From positions 1 to 31,144 of the IMG/VR virus record IMGVR_UViG_3300048118_000055: 31,144 nucleotides of DNA; one strand, written 5' to 3'. The position numbers and the translations under genes are program-made. Each line of letters starts with the position of its first letter. Positions within the stretch are counted from its first letter, which is position 1. This document shows, piece after piece, positions 1,546 to 22,838 of the stretch. Source of the DNA: a virus. The notes beneath the pieces are model-generated. The model made no database searches and was not told where the DNA came from. It worked only from the letters and a program-made list of their open reading frames with translations.

Positions 1546-1857
1546 CTACTTTGATGGTAGACCTTCCTGAATGAAAACACCAAGCGTACCGATCTGTCCT
1601 TCAGACAAACCTTTTGCTTGACCCCACATAAGACCAGACAATGGGCCGCGAGTCTCACCATTCCTATATGATAAGAGAGCGTCGATAATATAATCAGCGT
1701 CCTTTCCTACTAATGCGGGAAACGAACCCATACCCTGACCTTCTGTTCCATGACAACCTGCACAAACCATCCATGTACCACGAACATCTTCAAACCGATC
1801 TTCGTCTGCAAATACTGGTGCACTGATTAGTAACATTGATAATAATAAGTTTTTCAT
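1546..1857 (-). CDS. Secreted class I cytochrome c
   Basis: This 103-residue protein has a cleavable Sec signal (hydrophobic residues 4-16, likely cut after A17 in VFA-DE) and one haem c attachment motif, CAGCH at 32-36. It is followed by GTEGQG and a plausible axial methionine at M77 in a GLMWGQ segment. Size and layout match small monohaem c553/c4-like electron carriers of the periplasm. Haem would be attached by the host Ccm system, since none is encoded here. It starts 13 bases after the isocitrate lyase stop with an AAAGGA ribosome site, so it is in the same unit. A role in carrying electrons to or from a membrane partner is inferred; the next gene is a membrane protein. Confidence 0.88.
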   Translation of the reverse strand: MKNLLLSMLLISAPVFADEDRFEDVRGTWMVCAGCHGTEGQGMGSFPALVGKDADYIIDALLSYRNGETRGPLSGLMWGQAKGLSEGQIGTLGVFIQEGLPSK

Positions 1858-1870
1858 AACTATTCCTTTC

Positions 1871-3112
1871 TTAAAACTGGTCTTCTTCGGTCGAACCCGT
1901 CATAGCTGCGGTAGACGTAGAACCCAATGTAGTTGTAATGGCATCGAAGTAACCGACACCCACTTCTCTCTGGTGCTTCGCACCTGTGTATCCACGTGAC
2001 TCTGCAGCAAACTCTTCTTCTTGTAACAACGAGTATGCGTACATACCTTCATCTTTGTATCGGTTTGCGAAATCAAAGACAGAGTAGTTGGTCTGGTGGA
2101 ATCCTGCAAGTGTGATAAACTGGAACTTGAATCCCATCTTACCCAACTCACGTTGAAAATCTTTTAGTTCTTGATCGCCTGGAATTGATTTGCGCCAGTT
2201 GAATGACGGTGAACAGTTGTATGCCAACATTGCGTCGGGCACTGCACCTTTGACTGCGTCAGCGAAACGCTTCGCATCCTTCAAGTCGGGTGTCGATGTT
2301 TCACACCAAACGAGGTCTGCGTATTCTGCGTATGCCTGACCACGCACACAACCGAACTCTAGTCCCTTGCCCTCTTCGAGCATATAGAAACCTTCTTGTG
2401 TGCGACATTGAATAGATCCCGCAGTACCCTGCGCGACTCTCTTGATAAATGGTTTGTCGATGAGCGAAACATCACTAGAGATTAGTTTAGCAGACTCAGC
2501 ATCGGTACGAGCAATAACGACTGTATCAGTGCCAGCAACGTCACTAGCAAGGCGAGCGGCATTAAGGTTGCGTAGAGCTTGACTAGTCGGTATGAGAACT
2601 TTTCCTCCCAAGTGGCCACACTTCTTCTCGGCAGCAACTTGGTCTTCAAAGTGAACAGCGGCAGCACCTGCTTCAATAAGATTTCTTGCAAGTTCATACG
2701 CATTTAGAACCCCACCGAATCCTGCTTCAGCATCGGCAATAATAGGGGCAAATTCAAACCCGTTTCCATTTTCCAGATATTCGATCTGGTCTTGGCGTCT
2801 AAATGCATTATTGATGCTACGCACAACATTAGGAACGCTATCGACAGCATATAACGACTGATCCGGATAAACTTCGCCATGAGAGTTGGCCGACGCAGCC
2901 ACTTGCCATCCCGAAAGATATATCGCTTTGAGTCCTGCTTTAACGTGTTGTACTGCTTGTTGTCCATTATATGCTCCAAAAGTATTGATGTACTCATTTT
3001 CTTCAAAGAGTTGACGTAGTTTGGTTGCACCCATCTTTGCGAGGGTGTGATCGATTGATACGGTGCCTTGAAGACGACGAACGTCTTGGGGTGAGTAATC
3101 TCGTTTTTTCAT
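1871..3112 (-). CDS. aceA: Isocitrate lyase
   Basis: The enzyme splits isocitrate into glyoxylate and succinate, the first step of the glyoxylate shunt. The 413-residue protein aligns along nearly its full length with bacterial AceA (about 430 residues in E. coli). The signature KKCGH is at 163-167 with catalytic C165. Metal and substrate segments DAEAGFGG (127-134), WCETSTPDL (269-277) and NCSPSFNW (299-306) are present, and the C-terminus keeps the TGSTEEDQF end. No truncation or damaged motif is visible, so an active enzyme is expected. The ATG follows an AGGAT ribosome site 20 bases after tRNA-Glu, and cytochrome c follows after 13 bases. No malate synthase is in the window, so the fate of glyoxylate must depend on the host or on genes outside. 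The early-type promoter at 3218-3245 should drive it. Confidence 0.96.
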   Translation of the reverse strand: MKKRDYSPQDVRRLQGTVSIDHTLAKMGATKLRQLFEENEYINTFGAYNGQQAVQHVKAGLKAIYLSGWQVAASANSHGEVYPDQSLYAVDSVPNVVRSINNAFRRQDQIEYLENGNGFEFAPIIADAEAGFGGVLNAYELARNLIEAGAAAVHFEDQVAAEKKCGHLGGKVLIPTSQALRNLNAARLASDVAGTDTVVIARTDAESAKLISSDVSLIDKPFIKRVAQGTAGSIQCRTQEGFYMLEEGKGLEFGCVRGQAYAEYADLVWCETSTPDLKDAKRFADAVKGAVPDAMLAYNCSPSFNWRKSIPGDQELKDFQRELGKMGFKFQFITLAGFHQTNYSVFDFANRYKDEGMYAYSLLQEEEFAAESRGYTGAKHQREVGVGYFDAITTTLGSTSTAAMTGSTEEDQF

Positions 3113-4667: not shown

Positions 4668-5427
4668 TGAATTTTTTAAACAGAATGTCAGAAAATATGA
4701 CTTGAGTCTTTTCGCCAGGGTGGCCATGAGGTTTAAGATCATTATTCTCAACTGCGATCGTGTATAGATCCTTTTCCTTTCCCGCACCTATGCGGCTTGT
4801 ATTTTTGAGATCTATGATGGAATTCTTTAACCAAGACGAATACGCTGGCATACTTCCTGTCAAAACACTATCATCTGCATCAGGCTTTTCGTCGCGTAAG
4901 ATAGACATAATGTTTGTCCAACATCTTCTGTGGAAGAACCCCTGCACAAGTTTGATGTCCATGCTGTCGCATAAAAGTTCTAGGGTTTTGATTTTAGTGA
5001 GGGTGTGCATCACGTCTGTACGTGAGTCATAAGCGTTATCAAACCAATCTTCTATAACACTACGTTTTCTACGATCGTATATTCCCTGAGTACGCAGTGG
5101 AGAAAATTGAGTAACATCATTTTGTCGTTGAATCTTAATCTCTCTTTCTTTAGGCATGTACTCGACAAGTTCGGCGCGTTGGAATGCAGACCATATTACA
5201 ACGATATGTGTAACAGGCGTTTCTTGTCTAGGACGATGGAGATAATCCGTAACTTCACGAAATATTTTATCATTACCGGCACCACAAGAACCCAAGTTGG
5301 TATAGGGTATCGCCATTTTACCCGCAAGAATATGAGTGAAAGTCAAAGGCCAATGTGTGGGTGGATTGTTATCAAAACCTTTCAGTTCGTCTCCCCAGAC
5401 GAAACTACACCCTGCGGTCAGTAACAT
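4657..5427 (-). CDS. SGNH/GDSL-like hydrolase family protein
   Basis: This 256-residue protein starts with GCSFVWGDE, where S8 fits the block I nucleophile. SCGAGNDK (47-54) carries the glycine and asparagine of the oxyanion hole blocks, and a late PHGHPG (233-238) could supply the catalytic histidine. That order matches SGNH esterases and acyl hydrolases. Similar proteins in T4-like marine phages are usually left unnamed. Its ATG overlaps the iscU stop as TAATG, placing it at the end of the long run beginning near 12368. The substrate is unknown; carbohydrate or lipid deacylation is possible given the nucleotide-sugar genes upstream. Confidence 0.65.
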   Translation of the reverse strand: MLLTAGCSFVWGDELKGFDNNPPTHWPLTFTHILAGKMAIPYTNLGSCGAGNDKIFREVTDYLHRPRQETPVTHIVVIWSAFQRAELVEYMPKEREIKIQRQNDVTQFSPLRTQGIYDRRKRSVIEDWFDNAYDSRTDVMHTLTKIKTLELLCDSMDIKLVQGFFHRRCWTNIMSILRDEKPDADDSVLTGSMPAYSSWLKNSIIDLKNTSRIGAGKEKDLYTIAVENNDLKPHGHPGEKTQVIFSDILFKKFIDM

Positions 5428-5801
5428 TAGTTTTTCTCTTTATAGTCTTTGATCGCAGCCTTGATCGCATCTTCTGCGAGAACACTGCAGTGAATTTTTA
5501 CGGGTGGAAGTGCGAGTTCTTTGGCGATGTCTGTATTACGGATATTCCCTGCGTCTTCGATATTTTTACCTTTGACCCATTCGGTGAGCAAAGAACTAGA
5601 AGCAATAGCACTACCACAACCATAAGTTTTGAATTTCGCATCTTGAATAATTCCATCATCACCGACAAGAATCTGGAGTTGCATAACGTCACCACACGCG
5701 GGTGCACCGACCATGCCAGTACCAACGTTGTCGTCTTCTTTGTCCATCTTTCCCACGTTGCGTGGGTTCTCGTAGTGGTCTAGAACCTTGTCGGAATACA
5801 T
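5427..5801 (-). CDS. iscU: IscU Fe-S cluster assembly scaffold
   Basis: IscU receives sulfur from IscS and builds [2Fe-2S] clusters for transfer. The 124-residue protein is full length (bacterial IscU is about 128). The three cluster cysteines C36 (APACGD), C62 (YGCGSA) and C105 (KIHCS), the assembly aspartate D38 and H104 are all present. LPPVK at 98-102, the motif bound by the chaperone HscA, is intact, implying it can use host HscA/HscB. No IscS, IscA or chaperone is encoded here. It is coupled by TAATG overlaps to a 2OG-Fe(II) oxygenase upstream and an SGNH-like gene downstream. Confidence 0.95.
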   Translation of the reverse strand: MYSDKVLDHYENPRNVGKMDKEDDNVGTGMVGAPACGDVMQLQILVGDDGIIQDAKFKTYGCGSAIASSSLLTEWVKGKNIEDAGNIRNTDIAKELALPPVKIHCSVLAEDAIKAAIKDYKEKN

Positions 5802-12375: not shown

Positions 12376-12405
12376 ATTATATCATACACTAAGTGTATAT
12401 GTCAA
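12376..12405 (-). promoter_or_regulatory. Consensus promoter with inverted repeat in its spacer
   Basis: Perfect TTGACA (12400-12405), 18 bases, perfect TATAAT (12376-12381) on the minus strand. The spacer holds ATACAC-TTA-GTGTAT, a 6-base inverted repeat that could be an operator. The predicted start (about 12369) touches the ATG at 12368. It probably serves the long run down to about 4657. Confidence 0.8.
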
Positions 12406-12896
12406 CCAAAAAACTTTGGGATAAACTCATAGTAGTTAGTAAATTCTAGAACAACACCCGACCTATTGCATAATTTTTGCCAACGTTTTGCTTTCTTACG
12501 TTCGCCTTCAAGTTTTTGTTGGTGGTTCAAATTACCAGTATCATATACGTCATACAATAAACAAAATCGACCACCATAGGCGAGTAGTTCAGCCATATCG
12601 TAATGCGCCGTTGTTTTGTCTTTGTGAGTACCTAAGTCACTCAACTGTTTGCACTCTAAAAACCATCGGTTGTCTTCGGTATCCCAAAATACAAAATCAC
12701 AGAACCTTCTACGTCCCGAATAAGGACATTTGAAAGGCGCACGGCGCCGATATCGGACATTATAAGCTTTGAGTTGTTCCTCAACTCGATCCTCAAAACG
12801 TTGGCCTTCTTCTTGACCTCTAGAACCAGCAGTTATATATTTGGTCTCATTGTCGAAGAGAGATTCCTCTCCCATAAATTCACATAAATTGTTCAT
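12402..12896 (-). CDS. PD-(D/E)XK nuclease-like protein
   Basis: A 164-residue protein with the nuclease core: conserved E35 in an N-terminal helix (RFEDRVEE), then D67 in RFCDFVF and E81-x-K83 in FLECKQL, spaced as in PD-(D/E)XK enzymes. A basic stretch RYRRRAPFKC precedes the core and could contact DNA. ATG 12896 is fixed by a GAGGAG site 7 bases upstream, which follows directly after the terminator of the DUF262-HNH gene. Resolvase, repair or restriction-type activity are all possible; its place beside two defence-like genes makes a nuclease used against DNA competitors a reasonable guess. Confidence 0.6.
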   Translation of the reverse strand: MNNLCEFMGEESLFDNETKYITAGSRGQEEGQRFEDRVEEQLKAYNVRYRRRAPFKCPYSGRRRFCDFVFWDTEDNRWFLECKQLSDLGTHKDKTTAHYDMAELLAYGGRFCLLYDVYDTGNLNHQQKLEGERKKAKRWQKLCNRSGVVLEFTNYYEFIPKFFG

Positions 12897-12911
12897 TTCA
12901 CACTCCTCTGT

Positions 12912-12934
12912 AAAAAAGGGAACCGAAGTTCCCT
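12912..12934 (-). terminator. Rho-independent terminator with UUCG loop
   Basis: On the minus strand AGGGAAC-TTCG-GTTCCCT forms a perfect 7-base stem with the very stable TTCG tetraloop, followed by six T. It begins 6 bases after the stop of the DUF262-HNH gene. The ribosome site of the next gene starts a few bases beyond the T-run. Confidence 0.9.
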
Positions 12935-12939
12935 CTTGA

Positions 12940-14292
12940 CTACGCACTGACAGTTTTTATGGGATTCTTACCTAATTTACGGTTATCCTCTTTGGTTTGA
13001 ATCGCAAAATTTGACAGTTCGGTCTTTCCACCGTCAGCGTGTGGAATGATGTGTCCGATTTCAAATTCAGTAGTTAAGACATCTTCCATAAGAATCTCAA
13101 CACCTTCCGGAGTTACCCAATCTTGTCCCTTGGCGGTAATCAACTTCTCTTCATTATTTCCACTCCTACGAGCATCTAGTTGGATAAAGTACTTAGAAGC
13201 ATCGAACTTTTTAGTGATCAACGAGTTGCGGAGTTGGTTGAACCTGACCTCACGCGAACGTAACAATTCTGAAAAGTTCGCTGAACGACCGTTCTTGTTA
13301 TATGAATGTTCAGTCTTGTCTTCGATCAAATCAATTTGTGCATTGATGTAGTCTTTCACAAAACTTTCTGGATTCTTAATTTTCTTACCTGACCTTAACT
13401 GATCTAGGTAAATAACAAACAGATCAAGCAATCCATTTTCACGTTTGAAGATCGACAACCTTTTACCAACAATATTAATGAATTGAGTAAATTCATTGGC
13501 GAATTTATTGACAAGTTTATTAGCGCTTACGTCATAATACATCAACTCCAGATTCTTATTGGTTATTTTAGACTCTAAACCTTCGATGTAGATCATACAC
13601 AATCCAGCAACATAATCATCCAGTTTGCGGCGATTCAGTTCTTTTTGAGTAAAGACTTTAGAATTTAAGAAATTTTTCATATTGTCTGTAGCGACTTTCC
13701 TAATTCGATCAGATACATCAGAAAGAATTGGGTTTCTCAATTCTGCAGCATTTAACGTGACGCCACTATTTACAACCAAAAAGATACGAGTGATATCTTC
13801 CTTAGTAGCGTTTAGATAACTTTCCAAAGTTATCTTGCGAGATTCTAGGACAGTTTTTAACCCCAAAGGAAGAGTTGAATACCTGTTATTAGAAGGAGTA
13901 ATTGCGTAGACTTCCTCACCTACCACATAGTTACCTTCTGGAATACCGAACTCATTTTTTTTATAAGAATCAATGCACATTGTACGGTTATTGGAATCTA
14001 GATTTAGGTACCCATACTTACCTATAAACTGAGAAAAGTATTCGATAGATTGCGTATCATTGTTCAGTTCAGCAGCTGCCAAACAAGATGGCACATGCGA
14101 AAGGATGAACTTAGATGGTGCGGTATTCAGTATTAGAGAAATAATAAACTCTTGTTTATCCGACACCTCCCAACGAGTTACCGACTGACAATTCAAGTCA
14201 GCATGTATAGATGGGATGATTGAAGCGTATGCCCCAAAAGTTGTGTTTGATGTTCTCGATTCAACAGATTTGTAAGTTTTTAAGTTTTTCAT
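12940..14292 (-). CDS. DUF262-HNH endonuclease-like protein
   Basis: A 450-residue protein joining an N-terminal DUF262 domain to a C-terminal HNH nuclease, as in GmrSD-type (type IV restriction) and related proteins. The DUF262 hallmark is ITRIFLVVNSGVTLNAAELRNP (split here: ITRIF at 167-171, NSGVTLNAAELRNP at 175-188). The N-terminal QSVTRWEV (36-43) corresponds to the usual QRxxxW motif but has lost the adjacent arginine. The HNH core is GHIIPHADGG (413-422) with H414 and H418, then LSNFAIQ and N437. It has its own promoter (14371-14399), a long leader and its own terminator (12912-12934), so it is an autonomous unit. A phage-encoded exclusion nuclease or homing-type element are the main options. 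Confidence 0.75.
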   Translation of the reverse strand: MKNLKTYKSVESRTSNTTFGAYASIIPSIHADLNCQSVTRWEVSDKQEFIISLILNTAPSKFILSHVPSCLAAAELNNDTQSIEYFSQFIGKYGYLNLDSNNRTMCIDSYKKNEFGIPEGNYVVGEEVYAITPSNNRYSTLPLGLKTVLESRKITLESYLNATKEDITRIFLVVNSGVTLNAAELRNPILSDVSDRIRKVATDNMKNFLNSKVFTQKELNRRKLDDYVAGLCMIYIEGLESKITNKNLELMYYDVSANKLVNKFANEFTQFINIVGKRLSIFKRENGLLDLFVIYLDQLRSGKKIKNPESFVKDYINAQIDLIEDKTEHSYNKNGRSANFSELLRSREVRFNQLRNSLITKKFDASKYFIQLDARRSGNNEEKLITAKGQDWVTPEGVEILMEDVLTTEFEIGHIIPHADGGKTELSNFAIQTKEDNRKLGKNPIKTVSA

Positions 14293-14370
14293 AATATACC
14301 TTTATATGTAAGTTAGGTTTTGTAGGAAGAGAAGGAGTCGTCATGAGTCGTTCTTCGAACCTACAGTCAT

Positions 14371-14399
14371 ATAGTACCAAAGTATAACCACTTTGGCAA
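14371..14399 (-). promoter_or_regulatory. Promoter of the DUF262-HNH gene with overlapping inverted repeat
   Basis: TTGCCA (14394-14399), 17 bases, TACTAT (14371-14376) on the minus strand. The inverted repeat CCAAAGT-6-ACTTTGG (14377-14396) covers the spacer and part of the -35 box, exactly where a repressor would block RNA polymerase. The leader to the ATG at 14292 is about 70 bases and holds no other gene. Confidence 0.55.
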
Positions 14400-14405
14400 C
14401 ACTTT

Positions 14406-15542
14406 TTATCGAATAATATCGATATCTTCAGGGTTGGTGTTCCACGTCTCAACAGTGTAACGTAGTCTACCTTCGTTCTTGAGTGTCTCATATCGTTTGG
14501 AGGCTTTGTTCTTCCACCACTCAATGATATTCTCAGTCTCGAATCGGTCAAAGTTCTCAGCGGATTTGAGTTCGTCGGTTCGAAGATTCATGTAATCTTT
14601 TACCGACTGTGCCTCGTGTCCGTAAGTACTATAGTATGATCTCTTACGTTCGGTAAGACTCTTCGCATCAAGGAAGGTCTGACAGAACTTTTGATATGCA
14701 TCATTATCCACACCCTTGAGTGAGGCCTTGATGATCGATGCCATCTTTGTCTGTGTCTTCAGTTTACGAGATGACGCATCGGCGGGAACCAAATACTCAC
14801 CCTCGTTTCGTTCCTTGAACCAGTCGTTCAGTGTACGAAACTTTTCATCATTAATCAAAGGCGCAAAGTTGCTGTCAGTCAATCCATTGTGGCGTAGGAA
14901 TGGACGCATACCGTCATACATCGATGATGACTTAGATGAACCATACAAACTAGTTGTTTCGAAAAGACATATGTTTGCATCGTACTTTTTGTTTAACGCA
15001 CGACGCACTAGATGCGAACAACAAATGCCCGCCAACAGTTTACCACCAAGGTAGTTATATCCTACAGGCTGGACAGGAACAATATTAAAACCCATTATAG
15101 CAGACTTGTTAAATCTTCTCATAACATCTGGATTCATGGTGTCAAGAGGCGCACCCAACCATTCGTTACGTGGACGCGAATTAATCGTAGGTGACCCAAA
15201 ACGGATCATCCCAAATACTTGACCAGTGTTCTTCTCTTTGACGATGTAGAGAAGTTGTTTGCCTGGGATCGACGACTCGACTGGAGCGGATGTCGTGATC
15301 TCCATGTATGTCATGAAGTGATCCTGACGACACTCGTATATTGAGAATTCCATGTCGTTGGGATGAATAGAGAAGTCGTCAAACAAATCCGTCTCTGGGC
15401 CCATGCCAGGCAGAGATGCTGGAAAGGTTGCCATACGATCCATTTTGATAGAACGTTGGTATTCATCGATGCGATCGAAGCTGCCAAAGAAATCAGAAAA
15501 GACATTCGCCGCATGGATTGCGTCTGGCTTAGATAGAATCAT
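14406..15542 (-). CDS. DUF4338/DruA-like protein
   Basis: A 378-residue protein. The centre reads GQVFGMIRFGSPTI, RPRNEWLGAP and, after a short gap, GFNIVPVQPVGYNYLGGKLLAG, then a cysteine/histidine pair (ICCSH), LFETTSLYGSSKSS and a glycine-rich region. This order is that of DUF4338, the family of DruA in the Druantia anti-phage system, where RNEWLG and the 'GGKLL' helix are characteristic. The C-terminal 130 residues are charged and helical. ATG 15542 follows a GGGAG site by 7 bases and its own promoter. Whether it defends, counteracts defence or processes DNA is not known. Confidence 0.6.
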   Translation of the reverse strand: MILSKPDAIHAANVFSDFFGSFDRIDEYQRSIKMDRMATFPASLPGMGPETDLFDDFSIHPNDMEFSIYECRQDHFMTYMEITTSAPVESSIPGKQLLYIVKEKNTGQVFGMIRFGSPTINSRPRNEWLGAPLDTMNPDVMRRFNKSAIMGFNIVPVQPVGYNYLGGKLLAGICCSHLVRRALNKKYDANICLFETTSLYGSSKSSSMYDGMRPFLRHNGLTDSNFAPLINDEKFRTLNDWFKERNEGEYLVPADASSRKLKTQTKMASIIKASLKGVDNDAYQKFCQTFLDAKSLTERKRSYYSTYGHEAQSVKDYMNLRTDELKSAENFDRFETENIIEWWKNKASKRYETLKNEGRLRYTVETWNTNPEDIDIIR

Positions 15543-15565: not shown

Positions 15566-15594
15566 ATTATACCAAAATATTGTCGGTCTGTCAA
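15566..15594 (-). promoter_or_regulatory. Consensus promoter of the DUF4338-like gene
   Basis: Perfect TTGACA (15589-15594), 17 bases, perfect TATAAT (15566-15571), minus strand. The start is expected near 15559, giving a leader of about 17 bases. The -35 box overlaps the last codons of the DNA polymerase gene. Confidence 0.85.
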
Positions 15595-18074
15595 CCGAAG
15601 AAGTCTTCAAGTGATGCCTGTGGTTCTGCGTCCCACCCCACTGCATCTAGGATTGGAATCAAAGGGTCTAGAAAAGTCTTGTCAAACATTAGATTATAAT
15701 CAACATATTTGTGAAGACCAAGTTCCTTCGGTAAGTTGAGAGGATATGACACAACATTCTGACCTAAACGATTAGGCATCTTGAGATAAACAAACTTTAT
15801 CTTCTCACCTTGTTTTACGGTCTCATAACGTTTACCAAGATTCTTCTCTCCAATCGCATTGTTATAACACAGGGCACCACGCACATGGATAGGAGTTCCC
15901 TTCTTAAAGATATTTTTGCGGTCTTGCCATTTGGTGAGGTTTGACACACCGCGTGGGAACGACACATCTTCGGGCGGAAGAGTCCCAAAGTGGGCCCGGA
16001 AGTCACGAATGTATCCTTGAGTGTCAGATTCGGTGCCTTCTACAATGACGCGGAAGATCTCTTTGAACTTATCACGGACAACCTGTGGGGTCGATGACTT
16101 GATCGCCTCAATACCCATCATCTTGAGTTTAGGTTCTGCGTACTGAACACCCTCATTGTTGTGCACGTTTAAGATGTATCGTTTCTTCGCCATCCAGATA
16201 CCACGGTCTGCGATGACCTCACGACCCATCTCCATGCGATTCTCATAGGCACCCGTCACTTCGGCCATAGTCGCATAAGAGTCCGCAAGAACCTTCTCGA
16301 AGTGGTCTGCGCAAATCTTATCTAGGAACTTGACGGGATTGTTTGGCGCAAACTTCTCGACCAGATCACCCATGCGAATATACACGGAGTCGGTATCAAT
16401 TGCGACGACGTAGTCCTCATCTGTTTTGAGAACATCTTGCATCGCACCATTGACCGCACGTTCTGCCCACTTGATTGCAAGTTGACCAGCAAGAGTAATA
16501 GACTCTGCGACACGTTGGTCAAAGTACCGGAACCAACGATTACCGAGCGCACCATAAAGAGAGTTCATAAGAATCTTAATGGCCATCTGTTGATTGTCAA
16601 GAGACGATATCCGGTATTCCAATTCTTTGGAAGGATTTTTCTGCATCTCTTGTTGCGCCTTGATCATATTGTCCTTTATCACACGACGCTCAGAATAGTA
16701 TTGTTTAATGATTGTCGGGATGACCCCTTCACGATCATGCGAGAACCTAACTCCTGTGGGGGCCACAGAGTGTTCTTGTTGACCAACATCTACAGTCCCA
16801 TCAAGGAACTTATCCACGGAAACACCATTCTGGAACCCGTCTAGGACAGTCTCAGGTGACATGTTATATTGAACAATGATGTTCGGATACAGAGAGTTCA
16901 AGTCAAACGATGTGACCCAATCGTGTGACCCTACCTGTGGGTCTTTCACATAACCGCCAGGATATGGAGTTTTTGGTTTTTCGGTCTTAGGGGGAACCGC
17001 AATCTTCTGTTTGTTTAGCAGTCGATAGATGATAGTGTCCCAGATGGCAGTGGTGCCTAGAGTATCATTATAGTTGACACCCGCCTTGTAAGCCATAGTG
17101 AATATGAGATCAAGCAAGTCGAGTTTGACATCTAGTTTATGAACTAACTCAACGTCCTTCACGTTATAGTCAATGAACTTCTGGTAGTCCTGTTCATAGA
17201 GCGTGTGAAGATTTCCGTGTTCTTCATAAGAGAGTTTACGTTCTCCTAGAACTACGTGCGAGATATGATCGAGACGATACGATTCTTGTTGGCCAAGAGT
17301 ATTGTATGTGAACTTCTTGAAAACCTCTAGGTAGTCAAGTTGCTCGATACCATTGATGATATACTCTTGGTTCTGTTTACCATTGATGGTGATATTACGT
17401 TCTTTAATAAGTCCCCAAGGAGACATACGCTTTAGTAACGTGTCGTTACCGAATAACTTATAACAACGATTGACGATATATGGAATATCAAAGAATCGCG
17501 TGTTCCATCCGGTGATCACATCAGGCGCATACTCTTCGAATCTTCGGATAAACTTGCGGACAAGATCAATCTCATTATCGCACTTAATGTAAAGTACATC
17601 CTCGCGGGTGGGCGTGTAGTCACCACAACCCCAGACCCAGTAAGTCCCCGTGTCTTCACGCATACAGACAGCAGTGATGGGGTGTGCTGCATCTTCGGGA
17701 GAAGGAAAACCATCGGCAGAAAATACCTCAATATCTATGTTGGCAGTTTTGATTAAACTACGATCATAGGGGATTCGTTCAGGCCATTCTTCCGCGATGA
17801 ATTGTGCGGTGTAGTTTGTATTGCCTGCGATTTGAAAGTTAGAAACATTTTCATAACGTTTGACAAAGTCTTTCGCTTCTGACATAGACTCGAAGATGAC
17901 AGGTTGCATCGGGAGTCCGTCTAGAGTAGTCCAACCTTCTTGGCTTTCTCCAGACATGAATAGTGTAGGTTTAAATGGGATACGCGATTTGACAGAACTT
18001 CCTGTCTCATCGTACCCACGATATAGTAGTTTGTCGCCATATCGGACGACAGATGTATAGAATTTTTTAGTCAT
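15591..18074 (-). CDS. 43: Family B DNA polymerase, T4 gp43
   Basis: The replicative polymerase with proofreading. Of 827 residues, the exonuclease domain holds NIDIEVF (112-118), [11 protein letters not shown] and [10 protein letters not shown]. The polymerase palm has [10 protein letters not shown] (motif A), [13 protein letters not shown] (motif B) and AIDTDSVYI (motif C). The end, ASLEDFFG, resembles a clamp-binding tail. It is slightly shorter than T4 gp43 (898). ATG 18074 is chosen because the promoter occupies 18082-18110; a frame reaching 18110 would cross it. The predicted transcript starts at or beside the ATG, so translation may be leaderless, unlike T4 gene 43, which is controlled through its leader. 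The glycosyltransferase-like gene ends 33 bases upstream. Confidence 0.97.
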
Positions 18075-18081
18075 GTCCACC

Positions 18082-18110
18082 ATTATACACGAAGTAATAG
18101 GGGGTGTCAA
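18082..18110 (-). promoter_or_regulatory. Consensus promoter of DNA polymerase
   Basis: Perfect TTGACA (18105-18110), 17 bases, perfect TATAAT (18082-18087) on the minus strand. The predicted start (about 18075) is next to the ATG at 18074. The -35 box overlaps the end of the glycosyltransferase-like gene. Confidence 0.88.
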
Positions 18111-22244: not shown

Positions 22245-22838
22245 TTACAATTTTTCGTTAGCATATCCGTGATTGATCTTTGCATGATACATTTCATCAC
22301 GACGAACACACACAATCATATCAGAGAGCATTGCACCCTTCTGTAAATCTATGTAATAATCTATGGCGATCTGTGGAGCAGGAACATTTTCAATCTTGCC
22401 CGACTCAATCAGATATAGGTAGTTAGTATAACTTTGTACAGCCTCTTCTTCAAAGTATCCCGTCATACGATGCGCGGTGCGAGGGAATAACATATACATC
22501 AACAAGTAGTAATGCCAGAATACAAACTGCACGAAGATGATCAGAACCCTCTCTAGAATAGAAGGTGAAACAATCTCCATGAAGAACATCAAGTGTTTGC
22601 GTTCATTGGTCGCCTCATCAAGTAGTTCTTGGATCTTGGTACCGTTACCCTTCTGCAGTCTGCGTAGACTATATAGGTGAGTGAGCATACCACCGACCAT
22701 GCCGGGAACACCCGCTACGGTCTCTAGAATAAGAGCACGTTTACCATAGTTCTGTCGGAAAAAAGTATCTGCAAAAAACCTAAAAAAAGCGGTCATTGAT
22801 CTTGCAAACGCATCTGATATTTTTGTAGTAATATTCAC
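22245..22838 (-). CDS. Alternative oxidase (ubiquinol oxidase)
   Basis: AOX passes electrons from ubiquinol straight to oxygen, by-passing the proton-pumping cytochrome chain. The 197-residue protein is the catalytic core. All six diiron ligands fit: E39 (LETVAGVPG), E79 and H82 (NERKHL), E130 (YFEEEAV), E182 and H185 (DEMYH). The family blocks IENVPAPQIAIDYY and RRDEMYHAKINH are present. Plant-type regulatory cysteines are absent, as in prokaryotic forms. It is an interfacial membrane protein. The start is GTG 22838 with a GGA site 6 bases upstream; no better ATG exists. It begins 14 bases after tRNA-Thr, as isocitrate lyase follows tRNA-Glu. Confidence 0.95.
   Translation of the reverse strand: MNITTKISDAFARSMTAFFRFFADTFFRQNYGKRALILETVAGVPGMVGGMLTHLYSLRRLQKGNGTKIQELLDEATNERKHLMFFMEIVSPSILERVLIIFVQFVFWHYYLLMYMLFPRTAHRMTGYFEEEAVQSYTNYLYLIESGKIENVPAPQIAIDYYIDLQKGAMLSDMIVCVRRDEMYHAKINHGYANEKL

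What the first reader, a model, noticed from the sequence alone, without database searches (positions are those of the whole stretch)
12402..15542. Candidate phage defence/exclusion island: DUF4338 + DUF262-HNH + PD-(D/E)XK
Three consecutive genes resemble anti-phage or restriction proteins: a DruA-like DUF4338, a GmrSD-like DUF262-HNH and a PD-(D/E)XK nuclease. They are inserted between the polymerase and the UvsX run, with separate promoters and a dedicated terminator. This could be an undescribed phage-carried system against competing phages or host DNA. It may equally be three unrelated cargo genes.
Basis: partly seen in the sequence, partly recalled or inferred. Interest (0 to 1): 0.78.

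Follow-up and report, generated by a model that had tools for sequence, protein, structure and literature searches.

The report
Phage acyltransferase gene with swappable nucleases
Next to its DNA-copying genes, a marine T4-like virus carries a mobile two-gene unit, a probable DNA-tagging enzyme (a relative of the bacterial defence protein DruA) and a DNA-cutting enzyme, and in related viruses the tagging gene stays while the cutting gene is repeatedly swapped, which suggests a virus-borne 'mark self, cut other' system that has not been tested.

Summary
The three reading frames are real. The 378-aa protein is DUF4338/DruA with a GNAT acyltransferase fold; phage Mu Mom, a DNA-modification enzyme, is the best or best-named structural match in two libraries, but other GNATs are close and sequence profiles do not link them. 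The 450-aa protein is a DUF262(GmrSD_N)-HNH nuclease of the GmrSD/SspE/DndI type. The third is PD-(D/E)XK by motif only. The trio does not travel together; the first two genes do: all 15 testable loci with a close DUF262-HNH relative have DUF4338 99-155 bp upstream, at three genomic places. DUF4338 carries its own consensus promoter and, behind its stop codon, a palindromic promoter that serves whichever partner follows. Phages whose DUF4338 is 94-98% identical carry four different partner arrangements. In cultured cyanophages and a pelagiphage DUF4338 stands alone. Best reading: a phage-borne DNA-modification 'writer' with a plug-in slot for modification-sensing nucleases. Main rival: homing-type nucleases parked beside DUF4338. 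No chemistry, target or anti-phage effect has been shown. It is not a Druantia system: no DruE-type helicase lies nearby.

The parts
14406..15542 (-). DUF4338/DruA-family protein, 378 aa, GNAT acyltransferase fold; candidate DNA-modification enzyme (phrog_19197)
   Evidence: Pfam 2e-9 over cut-off; phrog_19197 3e-153; AlphaFold2 model pLDDT 86.6; phage Mu Mom is the top VIA match, Z 9.9, other GNATs 8.3-9.2; Mom of phage FSL SP-031 in the viral library, E 4.9e-4; QPxGxNxLGGKLLA and FETTSLYG invariant or nearly so in 37 relatives
12940..14292 (-). DUF262 (GmrSD_N, ParB-like) - HNH nuclease, 450 aa
   Evidence: HNH weak in Pfam; relatives L132 and L147 hit GmrSD_N at 7e-10 and 1.6e-9; D99, N101, N102, R103 and N175-x-G177-x-x-L180-N181-x-x-E184-x-R186-N187 invariant; HNH profile matches Cas9 HNH at 8.5e-6; BrxU Z 7.1, SspE 6.8
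12402..12947 (-). candidate PD-(D/E)XK nuclease, 181 aa as listed (about 165 aa from the ATG at 12898); accessory, not conserved with the pair
   Evidence: D84-x13-E98-C-K100 motif conserved in L028 at 29% identity; no family or PDB hit; found only on the window contig and, distantly, behind DUF4338 in L028
15566..15594 (-). consensus sigma-70 promoter of the DUF4338 gene (TTGACA-17-TATAAT, TG at the extended -10 position)
   Evidence: 12 of 12 matches; a promoter scoring 10-12 of 12 stands 52-57 bp before the DUF4338 ATG in the close relatives (72% identity or more), whatever the left-hand neighbour
14371..14399 (-). second promoter directly behind the DUF4338 stop codon, with an inverted repeat (CCAAAGT..ACTTTGG) between its -35 and -10 boxes; serves the partner gene
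   Evidence: only copy in the window; the same element behind DUF4338 in L006, L007, L009, L011, L012, L013, L020 and L086, in front of DUF262-HNH, ParB-like c15 or ParB-like c11 genes alike; two pairs with changes on both sides
14321..14365 (-). conserved hairpin in the leader of the DUF262-HNH mRNA (UGUAGG...CCUACA)
   Evidence: leader 87% identical on average across four loci while the coding parts are 69-80% identical in most pairs; predicted stem (folding z only -1.5); a 23-mer of it occurs in 16 viral contigs, each of which carries the nuclease gene

Best explanation
The locus is a phage-borne 'writer plus exchangeable nuclease' unit. Shown here: the DUF4338 protein has a GNAT acyltransferase fold, and the downstream protein combines a ParB/DUF262 domain with an HNH nuclease. 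The two genes are linked wherever a close relative of the nuclease was found with enough flank; DUF4338 brings its own promoter and a second promoter for the partner; the partner is exchanged while DUF4338 stays. Inferred: DUF4338 transfers an acyl group from an acyl-CoA to bases of the phage's own replicating DNA, as Mu Mom does, which would explain its home in the replication cluster and its solo occurrence in other phages (protection against host restriction). The DUF262-HNH protein, like SspE, DndI, BrxU and GmrSD, reads DNA modification with nucleotide hydrolysis and nicks or cuts DNA of the wrong status: host DNA, or DNA of a competing phage without the mark. The strong promoter makes the writer first; the palindromic promoter and structured leader delay or limit the nuclease. 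The PD-(D/E)XK gene is an optional second effector.
For: GNAT fold with Mom as the top or best-named match in two structure libraries; a published statement that DUF4338 is a GNAT domain (PMC10853773). DUF262-HNH: relatives over the GmrSD_N cut-off; BrxU, SspE, ParB and DndI among the best folds; the Asp and Arg of the NTPase motif (DGQQR in DndI, Arg essential, PMC11662687) are kept as D99-S-N-N-R103. Linkage: 15 of 15 evaluable loci, gaps of 99-155 bp, at three genomic places. Own promoter at a fixed distance and a partner-independent second promoter. Writer constant, partner variable: window, L003, L005 and L006 share DUF4338 at 94-98% but carry DUF262-HNH + PD-(D/E)XK, YunG + ParB-like, YunG + another DUF262-HNH, and ParB-like c15; L009, L011 and L013 share it at 97-98% but carry ParB-like c15, an HNH allele, and an HNH allele 70% identical to that one. 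Selection: pN/pS 0.06-0.24 (DUF4338) and 0.14-0.27 (HNH). Analogy: true Mom genes lie beside ParB-like or HNH genes or the DNA polymerase in some phages, and Mom domains fused to REase domains in jumbo phages were predicted to protect phage DNA and attack other DNA (PMC7824862).
Against: No modified base, nuclease activity or anti-phage effect has been shown. Mom is not separated from other GNATs by a wide margin (Z 9.9 against 9.2 and below), and sequence profiles do not link DUF4338 to Mom (hhalign probability 1.4%), so the substrate could be a protein or small molecule. In cultured S-SSM7, Sf-FS3 and HTVC008M DUF4338 has no adjacent nuclease, so the pairing is not obligatory. The HNH alleles do not follow the DUF4338 phylogeny, so writer and nuclease are not matched allele by allele. 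A distant DUF262-HNH in phage Sf-FS3 lies about 100 kb from its DUF4338 gene, and DUF262/ParB-like nucleases also occur behind a YunG-like gene without DUF4338. The 15 linked loci represent only about five distinct alleles.
Confidence: 0.4

Rival explanations
1. The DUF262-HNH gene (like the ParB-like, GIY-YIG and PD-(D/E)XK partners) is a free-standing homing-type selfish nuclease. It persists beside DUF4338 because its homing site is there, and DUF4338 does something unrelated.
For: Free-standing homing nucleases beside replication genes are well known in T4-like phages (established knowledge). Partners are swapped and recombine independently of DUF4338, and nuclease types are mixed. The gp43 allele of the window (75-76% identical to L003, L005 and L006 while its neighbours are 82-97%) shows local gene exchange.
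Against: The nuclease moves with DUF4338 and its promoters to three genomic places; a homing gene would be expected to keep one target locus. DUF262 is a modification-reading NTPase domain in its characterised relatives (PMC11662687; PMC12707154). No contig carries the leader 23-mer without the nuclease gene, though an insertion could have split such a site.
Confidence: 0.3
2. DUF4338 is a stand-alone anti-restriction or DNA-modification gene of T4-like marine phages, and the neighbouring nucleases serve a separate purpose such as host genome degradation.
For: Solo copies with overlapping ends inside the replication operon in S-SSM7, Sf-FS3 and HTVC008M; no partner of the tested families within 2.6 kb in 29 of 85 distinct copies.
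Against: Linkage of the close DUF262-HNH family to DUF4338 in 15 of 15 evaluable loci, and a partner promoter embedded behind the DUF4338 stop codon.
Confidence: 0.17
3. The protein acylates a non-DNA target (for example a host or phage protein, a tRNA-charged amino acid or a small molecule), and the pair is a toxin-like or host-takeover module.
For: GNAT toxins such as TacT and AtaT2, and protein acetyltransferases, are among the GNAT matches; no sequence link to Mom.
Against: Mom leads the structural lists that name a function; the gene is placed among replication genes and has nuclease partners.
Confidence: 0.1

Closest known systems
Druantia DruA (DUF4338, Pfam PF14236)
   Same: Same Pfam family, over its cut-off; a structural match of six Synechococcus phage proteins, including one of S-PRM1, to DruA has been published (PMC12774648), and the S-PRM1 gene found here is 49% identical to the window protein.
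   Different: No DruE-type helicase or other Druantia gene nearby; the match to the PADLOC DruA models is weak (1.3e-5).
Phage Mu Mom and the Mom-REase proteins of jumbo phages
   Same: GNAT fold, Mom as the top structural match; phage-encoded; sits by replication genes or nucleases as some Mom genes do; the 'protect self, attack other' idea was proposed for Mom-REase fusions (PMC7824862).
   Different: No detectable sequence homology; much longer, with added N- and C-terminal helices; separate genes with a swappable DUF262/ParB-like nuclease rather than a REase fusion.
SspE, DndI, BrxU and GmrSD (DUF262-HNH modification-sensing nucleases)
   Same: N-terminal DUF262/ParB-like domain plus C-terminal HNH; linked to a candidate modification gene as SspE and DndI are (PMC11662687).
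   Different: Phage-encoded, shorter (450 aa); motif D-S-N-N-R in place of DGQQR; EIGH-type HNH; the partner is a GNAT, not a phosphorothioation complex.

Membership tests
DUF4338 / DruA protein family (PF14236) | profile match over the curated cut-off | tested here: met
   37.5 bits against 27, 2e-9; 37.4 bits in the six-frame search
Druantia defence system | DruE (YprA-like helicase) and the other dru genes beside druA | tested here: not met
   The neighbouring genes are gp43, a primase-like gene, sugar-nucleotide genes and UvsX; PADLOC finds only weak DruA matches in the trio
GNAT acyltransferase superfamily | GNAT fold and motif A (pyrophosphate-binding loop after strand 4) | tested here: met
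   147 chains at Z 8 or more, the 50 listed nearly all GNAT or related acyltransferases; Q158-P159-x-G161-x-N163-x-L165-G166-G167 invariant or nearly so in 37 relatives
Mom DNA-modification family | sequence or profile similarity to Mom | tested here: not met
   hhalign A1 against 11 Mom proteins: probability 1.4%, E 0.037 over strands 1-3 only
Mom DNA-modification family | closest fold is Mom rather than another GNAT | tested here: inconclusive
Mom DNA-modification family | acyl modification of DNA adenine | not testable with these tools
   needs nucleoside mass spectrometry
GmrSD/SspE/DndI (DUF262 + HNH) | N-terminal DUF262 (ParB-like) domain | tested here: met
   aligned relatives over the GmrSD_N cut-off, invariant motifs, BrxU/SspE/ParB top folds with Z 6.7-7.1
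GmrSD/SspE/DndI (DUF262 + HNH) | C-terminal HNH nuclease | tested here: met
   HNH_4 and HNH at about 1e-3 in the window protein, below cut-off; family profile matches Cas9 HNH at 8.5e-6; H414, N428 and N437 invariant in the four close relatives
GmrSD/SspE/DndI (DUF262 + HNH) | NTP-dependent activity that senses DNA modification | not testable with these tools
   inferred from the family only
PD-(D/E)XK nuclease superfamily (third gene) | D-x(n)-(D/E)-x-K catalytic motif on the PD-(D/E)XK fold | tested here: inconclusive
   D84-x13-E98-C-K100 conserved in L028; fold not predicted; no library match
free-standing homing endonuclease | target site present in alleles that lack the nuclease gene | tested here: inconclusive
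   leader 23-mer only in the 16 contigs with the nuclease gene; DUF4338 alleles of L003 and L005 end without the spacer; a site split by insertion was not searched

The most novel reading that the evidence does not exclude
T4-like marine phages carry a mobile, self-promoted acyltransferase 'writer' that marks phage DNA and has a plug-in slot for different modification-reading nucleases: a phage-owned, modular restriction-modification-like weapon based on a DruA/Mom-like acyl mark, which would also give a first biochemical role for DruA-family proteins.
Probability: 0.33. Interest if true: 0.82.

Novelty: new variant of a known kind. Interest (0 to 1): 0.6.

Why it matters
DruA-like proteins are widespread in T4-like cyanophages and pelagiphages, yet no role for them turned up in the papers searched. 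This locus gives a testable role (DNA acylation) and ties them to the modification-sensing nuclease world of SspE, DndI and GmrSD. A fixed modifier with interchangeable nucleases would be a compact design for phage-phage or phage-host conflict and would point to what DruA may do in bacterial Druantia. Cultured phages with the gene exist, so the key prediction, an unusual base in their DNA, can be tested directly.

Tried and rejected
Druantia membership: no dru neighbours. Trio as a conserved unit: a single-protein scan found the PD-(D/E)XK gene only on the window's contig, plus one 29%-identical copy in L028. Direct PDB sequence search for the HNH protein gave nothing; the profile of its family gave mainly Cas9-type HNH domains. 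Profile search of DUF4338 against PDB: nothing up to E 10. YunG-like companion (PF24585) against PDB: only hits above E 0.09, some of them IgG-degrading cysteine proteases, not significant. GapS1 match of the third gene: E 0.027, far under its cut-off, not pursued. 'Dedicated terminator': no excess over shuffles. Bacterial origin of this DUF4338 type: only 11 metagenome-assembled contigs among 85,000 genomes, probably phage contigs binned with hosts (inference). Literature search for DUF4338 with Mom: nothing held.
Full report
What is in the window. The window is part of a T4-like phage replication cluster on the minus strand; the record is a 31,144-base virus contig. Between gp43 polymerase and a primase-like gene lie three ORFs: DUF4338 (14406-15542), a 450-aa protein (12940-14292) and a 181-aa protein (12402-12947). 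UvsX lies beyond three further genes.

The first protein. It matches Pfam DruA/DUF4338 above the curated cut-off and is phrog_19197. It occurs in 31 phage records, mostly Synechococcus phages and HTVC008M, and in at least 104 stretches of viral contigs, but in only 11 metagenome-assembled contigs of 85,000 prokaryote genomes. Mean column identity over 37 relatives is 69%. An AlphaFold2 model (pLDDT 86.6) is a GNAT fold. In the viral library the first DNA-modification protein is Mom of phage FSL SP-031 (E 4.9e-4), behind mostly uncharacterised giant-virus and phage proteins. A published analysis calls DUF4338 a GNAT domain (PMC10853773). Profile-profile comparison with 11 Mom proteins is not significant. 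So the acyltransferase fold is firm, and DNA as substrate is an inference.

The second protein. Weak HNH hits only by itself, but an alignment with relatives from other phages (19-23% identity) joins it to proteins that pass the GmrSD_N/DUF262 cut-off (L132 7e-10, L147 1.6e-9; L143 1.1e-5 is below it). The signature positions D99, N101, N102, R103 and N-x-G-x-x-L-N-x-x-E-x-R-N are invariant. The family profile matches Cas9 HNH domains (8.5e-6). The model (pLDDT 78, C-terminus poor) is most like BrxU (Z 7.1), SspE (6.8) and ParB (6.7), with DndI at 5.2. These Z values are modest, but the list is headed by ParB-superfamily proteins. In DndI the Arg of DGQQR is needed for ATPase activity and defence (PMC11662687).

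The third protein. It has no family match. A D-x13-E-C-K motif is kept in a 29%-identical relative which also lies behind a DUF4338 gene, in L028. PD-(D/E)XK is plausible, not proven.

Do they travel together? Scanning 2.9 million viral contigs with the DUF262-HNH alignment gave 17 loci. In all 15 with enough upstream sequence DUF4338 is the gene before it, 99-155 bp away. These 15 represent only about five distinct alleles and include the window's own virus. The pair sits after gp43 (window), between a glycosyltransferase-like gene and gp43 (L007, L084, L090-L095), or beside the uvsW block (L086-L089, L097). The PD-(D/E)XK gene does not follow it.

Partner exchange. Window, L003, L005 and L006 are near relatives (DUF4338 94-98% identical) but carry DUF262-HNH plus PD-(D/E)XK, YunG-like plus ParB-like, YunG-like plus a different DUF262-HNH, and ParB-like c15. 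L009, L011 and L013 share DUF4338 and gp43 at 97-98% but carry ParB-like c15 plus a further gene, one HNH allele, and another HNH allele only 70% identical to it. The names ParB-like, GIY-YIG and (for the partners in L029 and L060) PD-(D/E)XK rest on reading the sequences; Pfam does not confirm them. Both genes of the pair are under purifying selection.

Regulation. A promoter matching the sigma-70 consensus at 10-12 of 12 positions stands 52-57 bp before DUF4338 in the close relatives, whatever lies to its left; most of the divergent clade that overlaps gp43 or gp41 lacks one. Behind the DUF4338 stop codon a second element, TTGCCA-palindrome-TAYTAT (TAATAT in L007), stands before DUF262-HNH, ParB-like c15 and ParB-like c11 partners alike, with two pairs changed on both sides. 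The DUF262-HNH gene has its own conserved leader with a predicted hairpin; a 23-mer of it occurs only in contigs that carry the gene. The partner gene is therefore plugged in behind a fixed, promoter-bearing DUF4338 module.

DUF4338 without partner. In S-SSM7 and Sf-FS3 it lies between gp44 and gp62, in HTVC008M behind gp43, overlapping its neighbours and without a nuclease. Among 85 distinct copies, 29 have no partner of the families tested within 2.6 kb; other partner families were not counted there.

Mechanism. I favour a writer and nuclease unit: the GNAT marks phage DNA, and the DUF262-HNH protein senses DNA status and cuts what is wrong. Published parallels are Mom-REase proteins of jumbo phages (PMC7824862) and SspE/DndI with phosphorothioation (PMC11662687). 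Some true Mom genes also sit beside ParB-like or HNH genes or the polymerase. The main rival is a homing-type nuclease that lives beside DUF4338; allele incongruence and partner turnover fit that too. Moving as a pair to three sites, and a partner promoter built into the DUF4338 end, speak against it but do not exclude it.

Novelty. DruA-like proteins in Synechococcus phages have been reported (PMC12774648), and Mom-plus-nuclease systems have been predicted. The DUF4338 plus DUF262-HNH pairing, its mobility and the exchangeable partner slot were not found in the papers searched, which cover open-access papers only.

Noticed in passing
window 1871-3112 (-): Isocitrate lyase gene (Pfam ICL 2.8e-91, KKCGH motif) in a T4-like phage contig.
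   Followed up: partly
window 22245-22838 (-): Alternative oxidase gene (Pfam AOX 3.1e-68) among replication genes.
   Followed up: partly
window 1546-1857 (-) and 5427-5801 (-): Small c-type cytochrome with a CxxCH motif (9.4e-5) and an IscU/NifU_N iron-sulphur scaffold (2.6e-53); with the two genes above this is an unusual respiratory and glyoxylate gene set for a phage.
   Followed up: partly
window 15591-18110 (-): The gp43 allele is 75-76% identical to those of L003, L005 and L006 although flanking genes are 82-97% identical: local replacement of the polymerase gene.
   Followed up: partly
window 15583-15598 (-): The TTGACA box of the DUF4338 promoter lies in a small hairpin at the end of the polymerase gene.
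   Followed up: no
L019:4222-4722, L113, L132, L143, L147, L172 and others: A YunG-like gene (PF24585; invariant GHC, HWW and a later Asp) is often followed by a DUF262-HNH or ParB-like gene, with or without DUF4338: a second companion type for these nucleases.
   Followed up: partly
BFVD A0A3G4ZXG3 (Faunusvirus), A0A5K0UAJ3 (Yasminevirus), A0A3G4ZRA1 (Dasosvirus): Uncharacterised giant-virus proteins are among the closest structural matches of the phage DUF4338 protein (E 1e-12 to 2e-7).
   Followed up: no
L025:2231-3199 (and L023), behind DUF4338: In this lineage the slot behind DUF4338 holds a DUF932 gene (2.3e-35).
   Followed up: no
L103, L104, L106, L196: ParB-like c11 genes that are several kb from DUF4338 or have none in their flanks: exceptions to the linkage of that family.
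   Followed up: no
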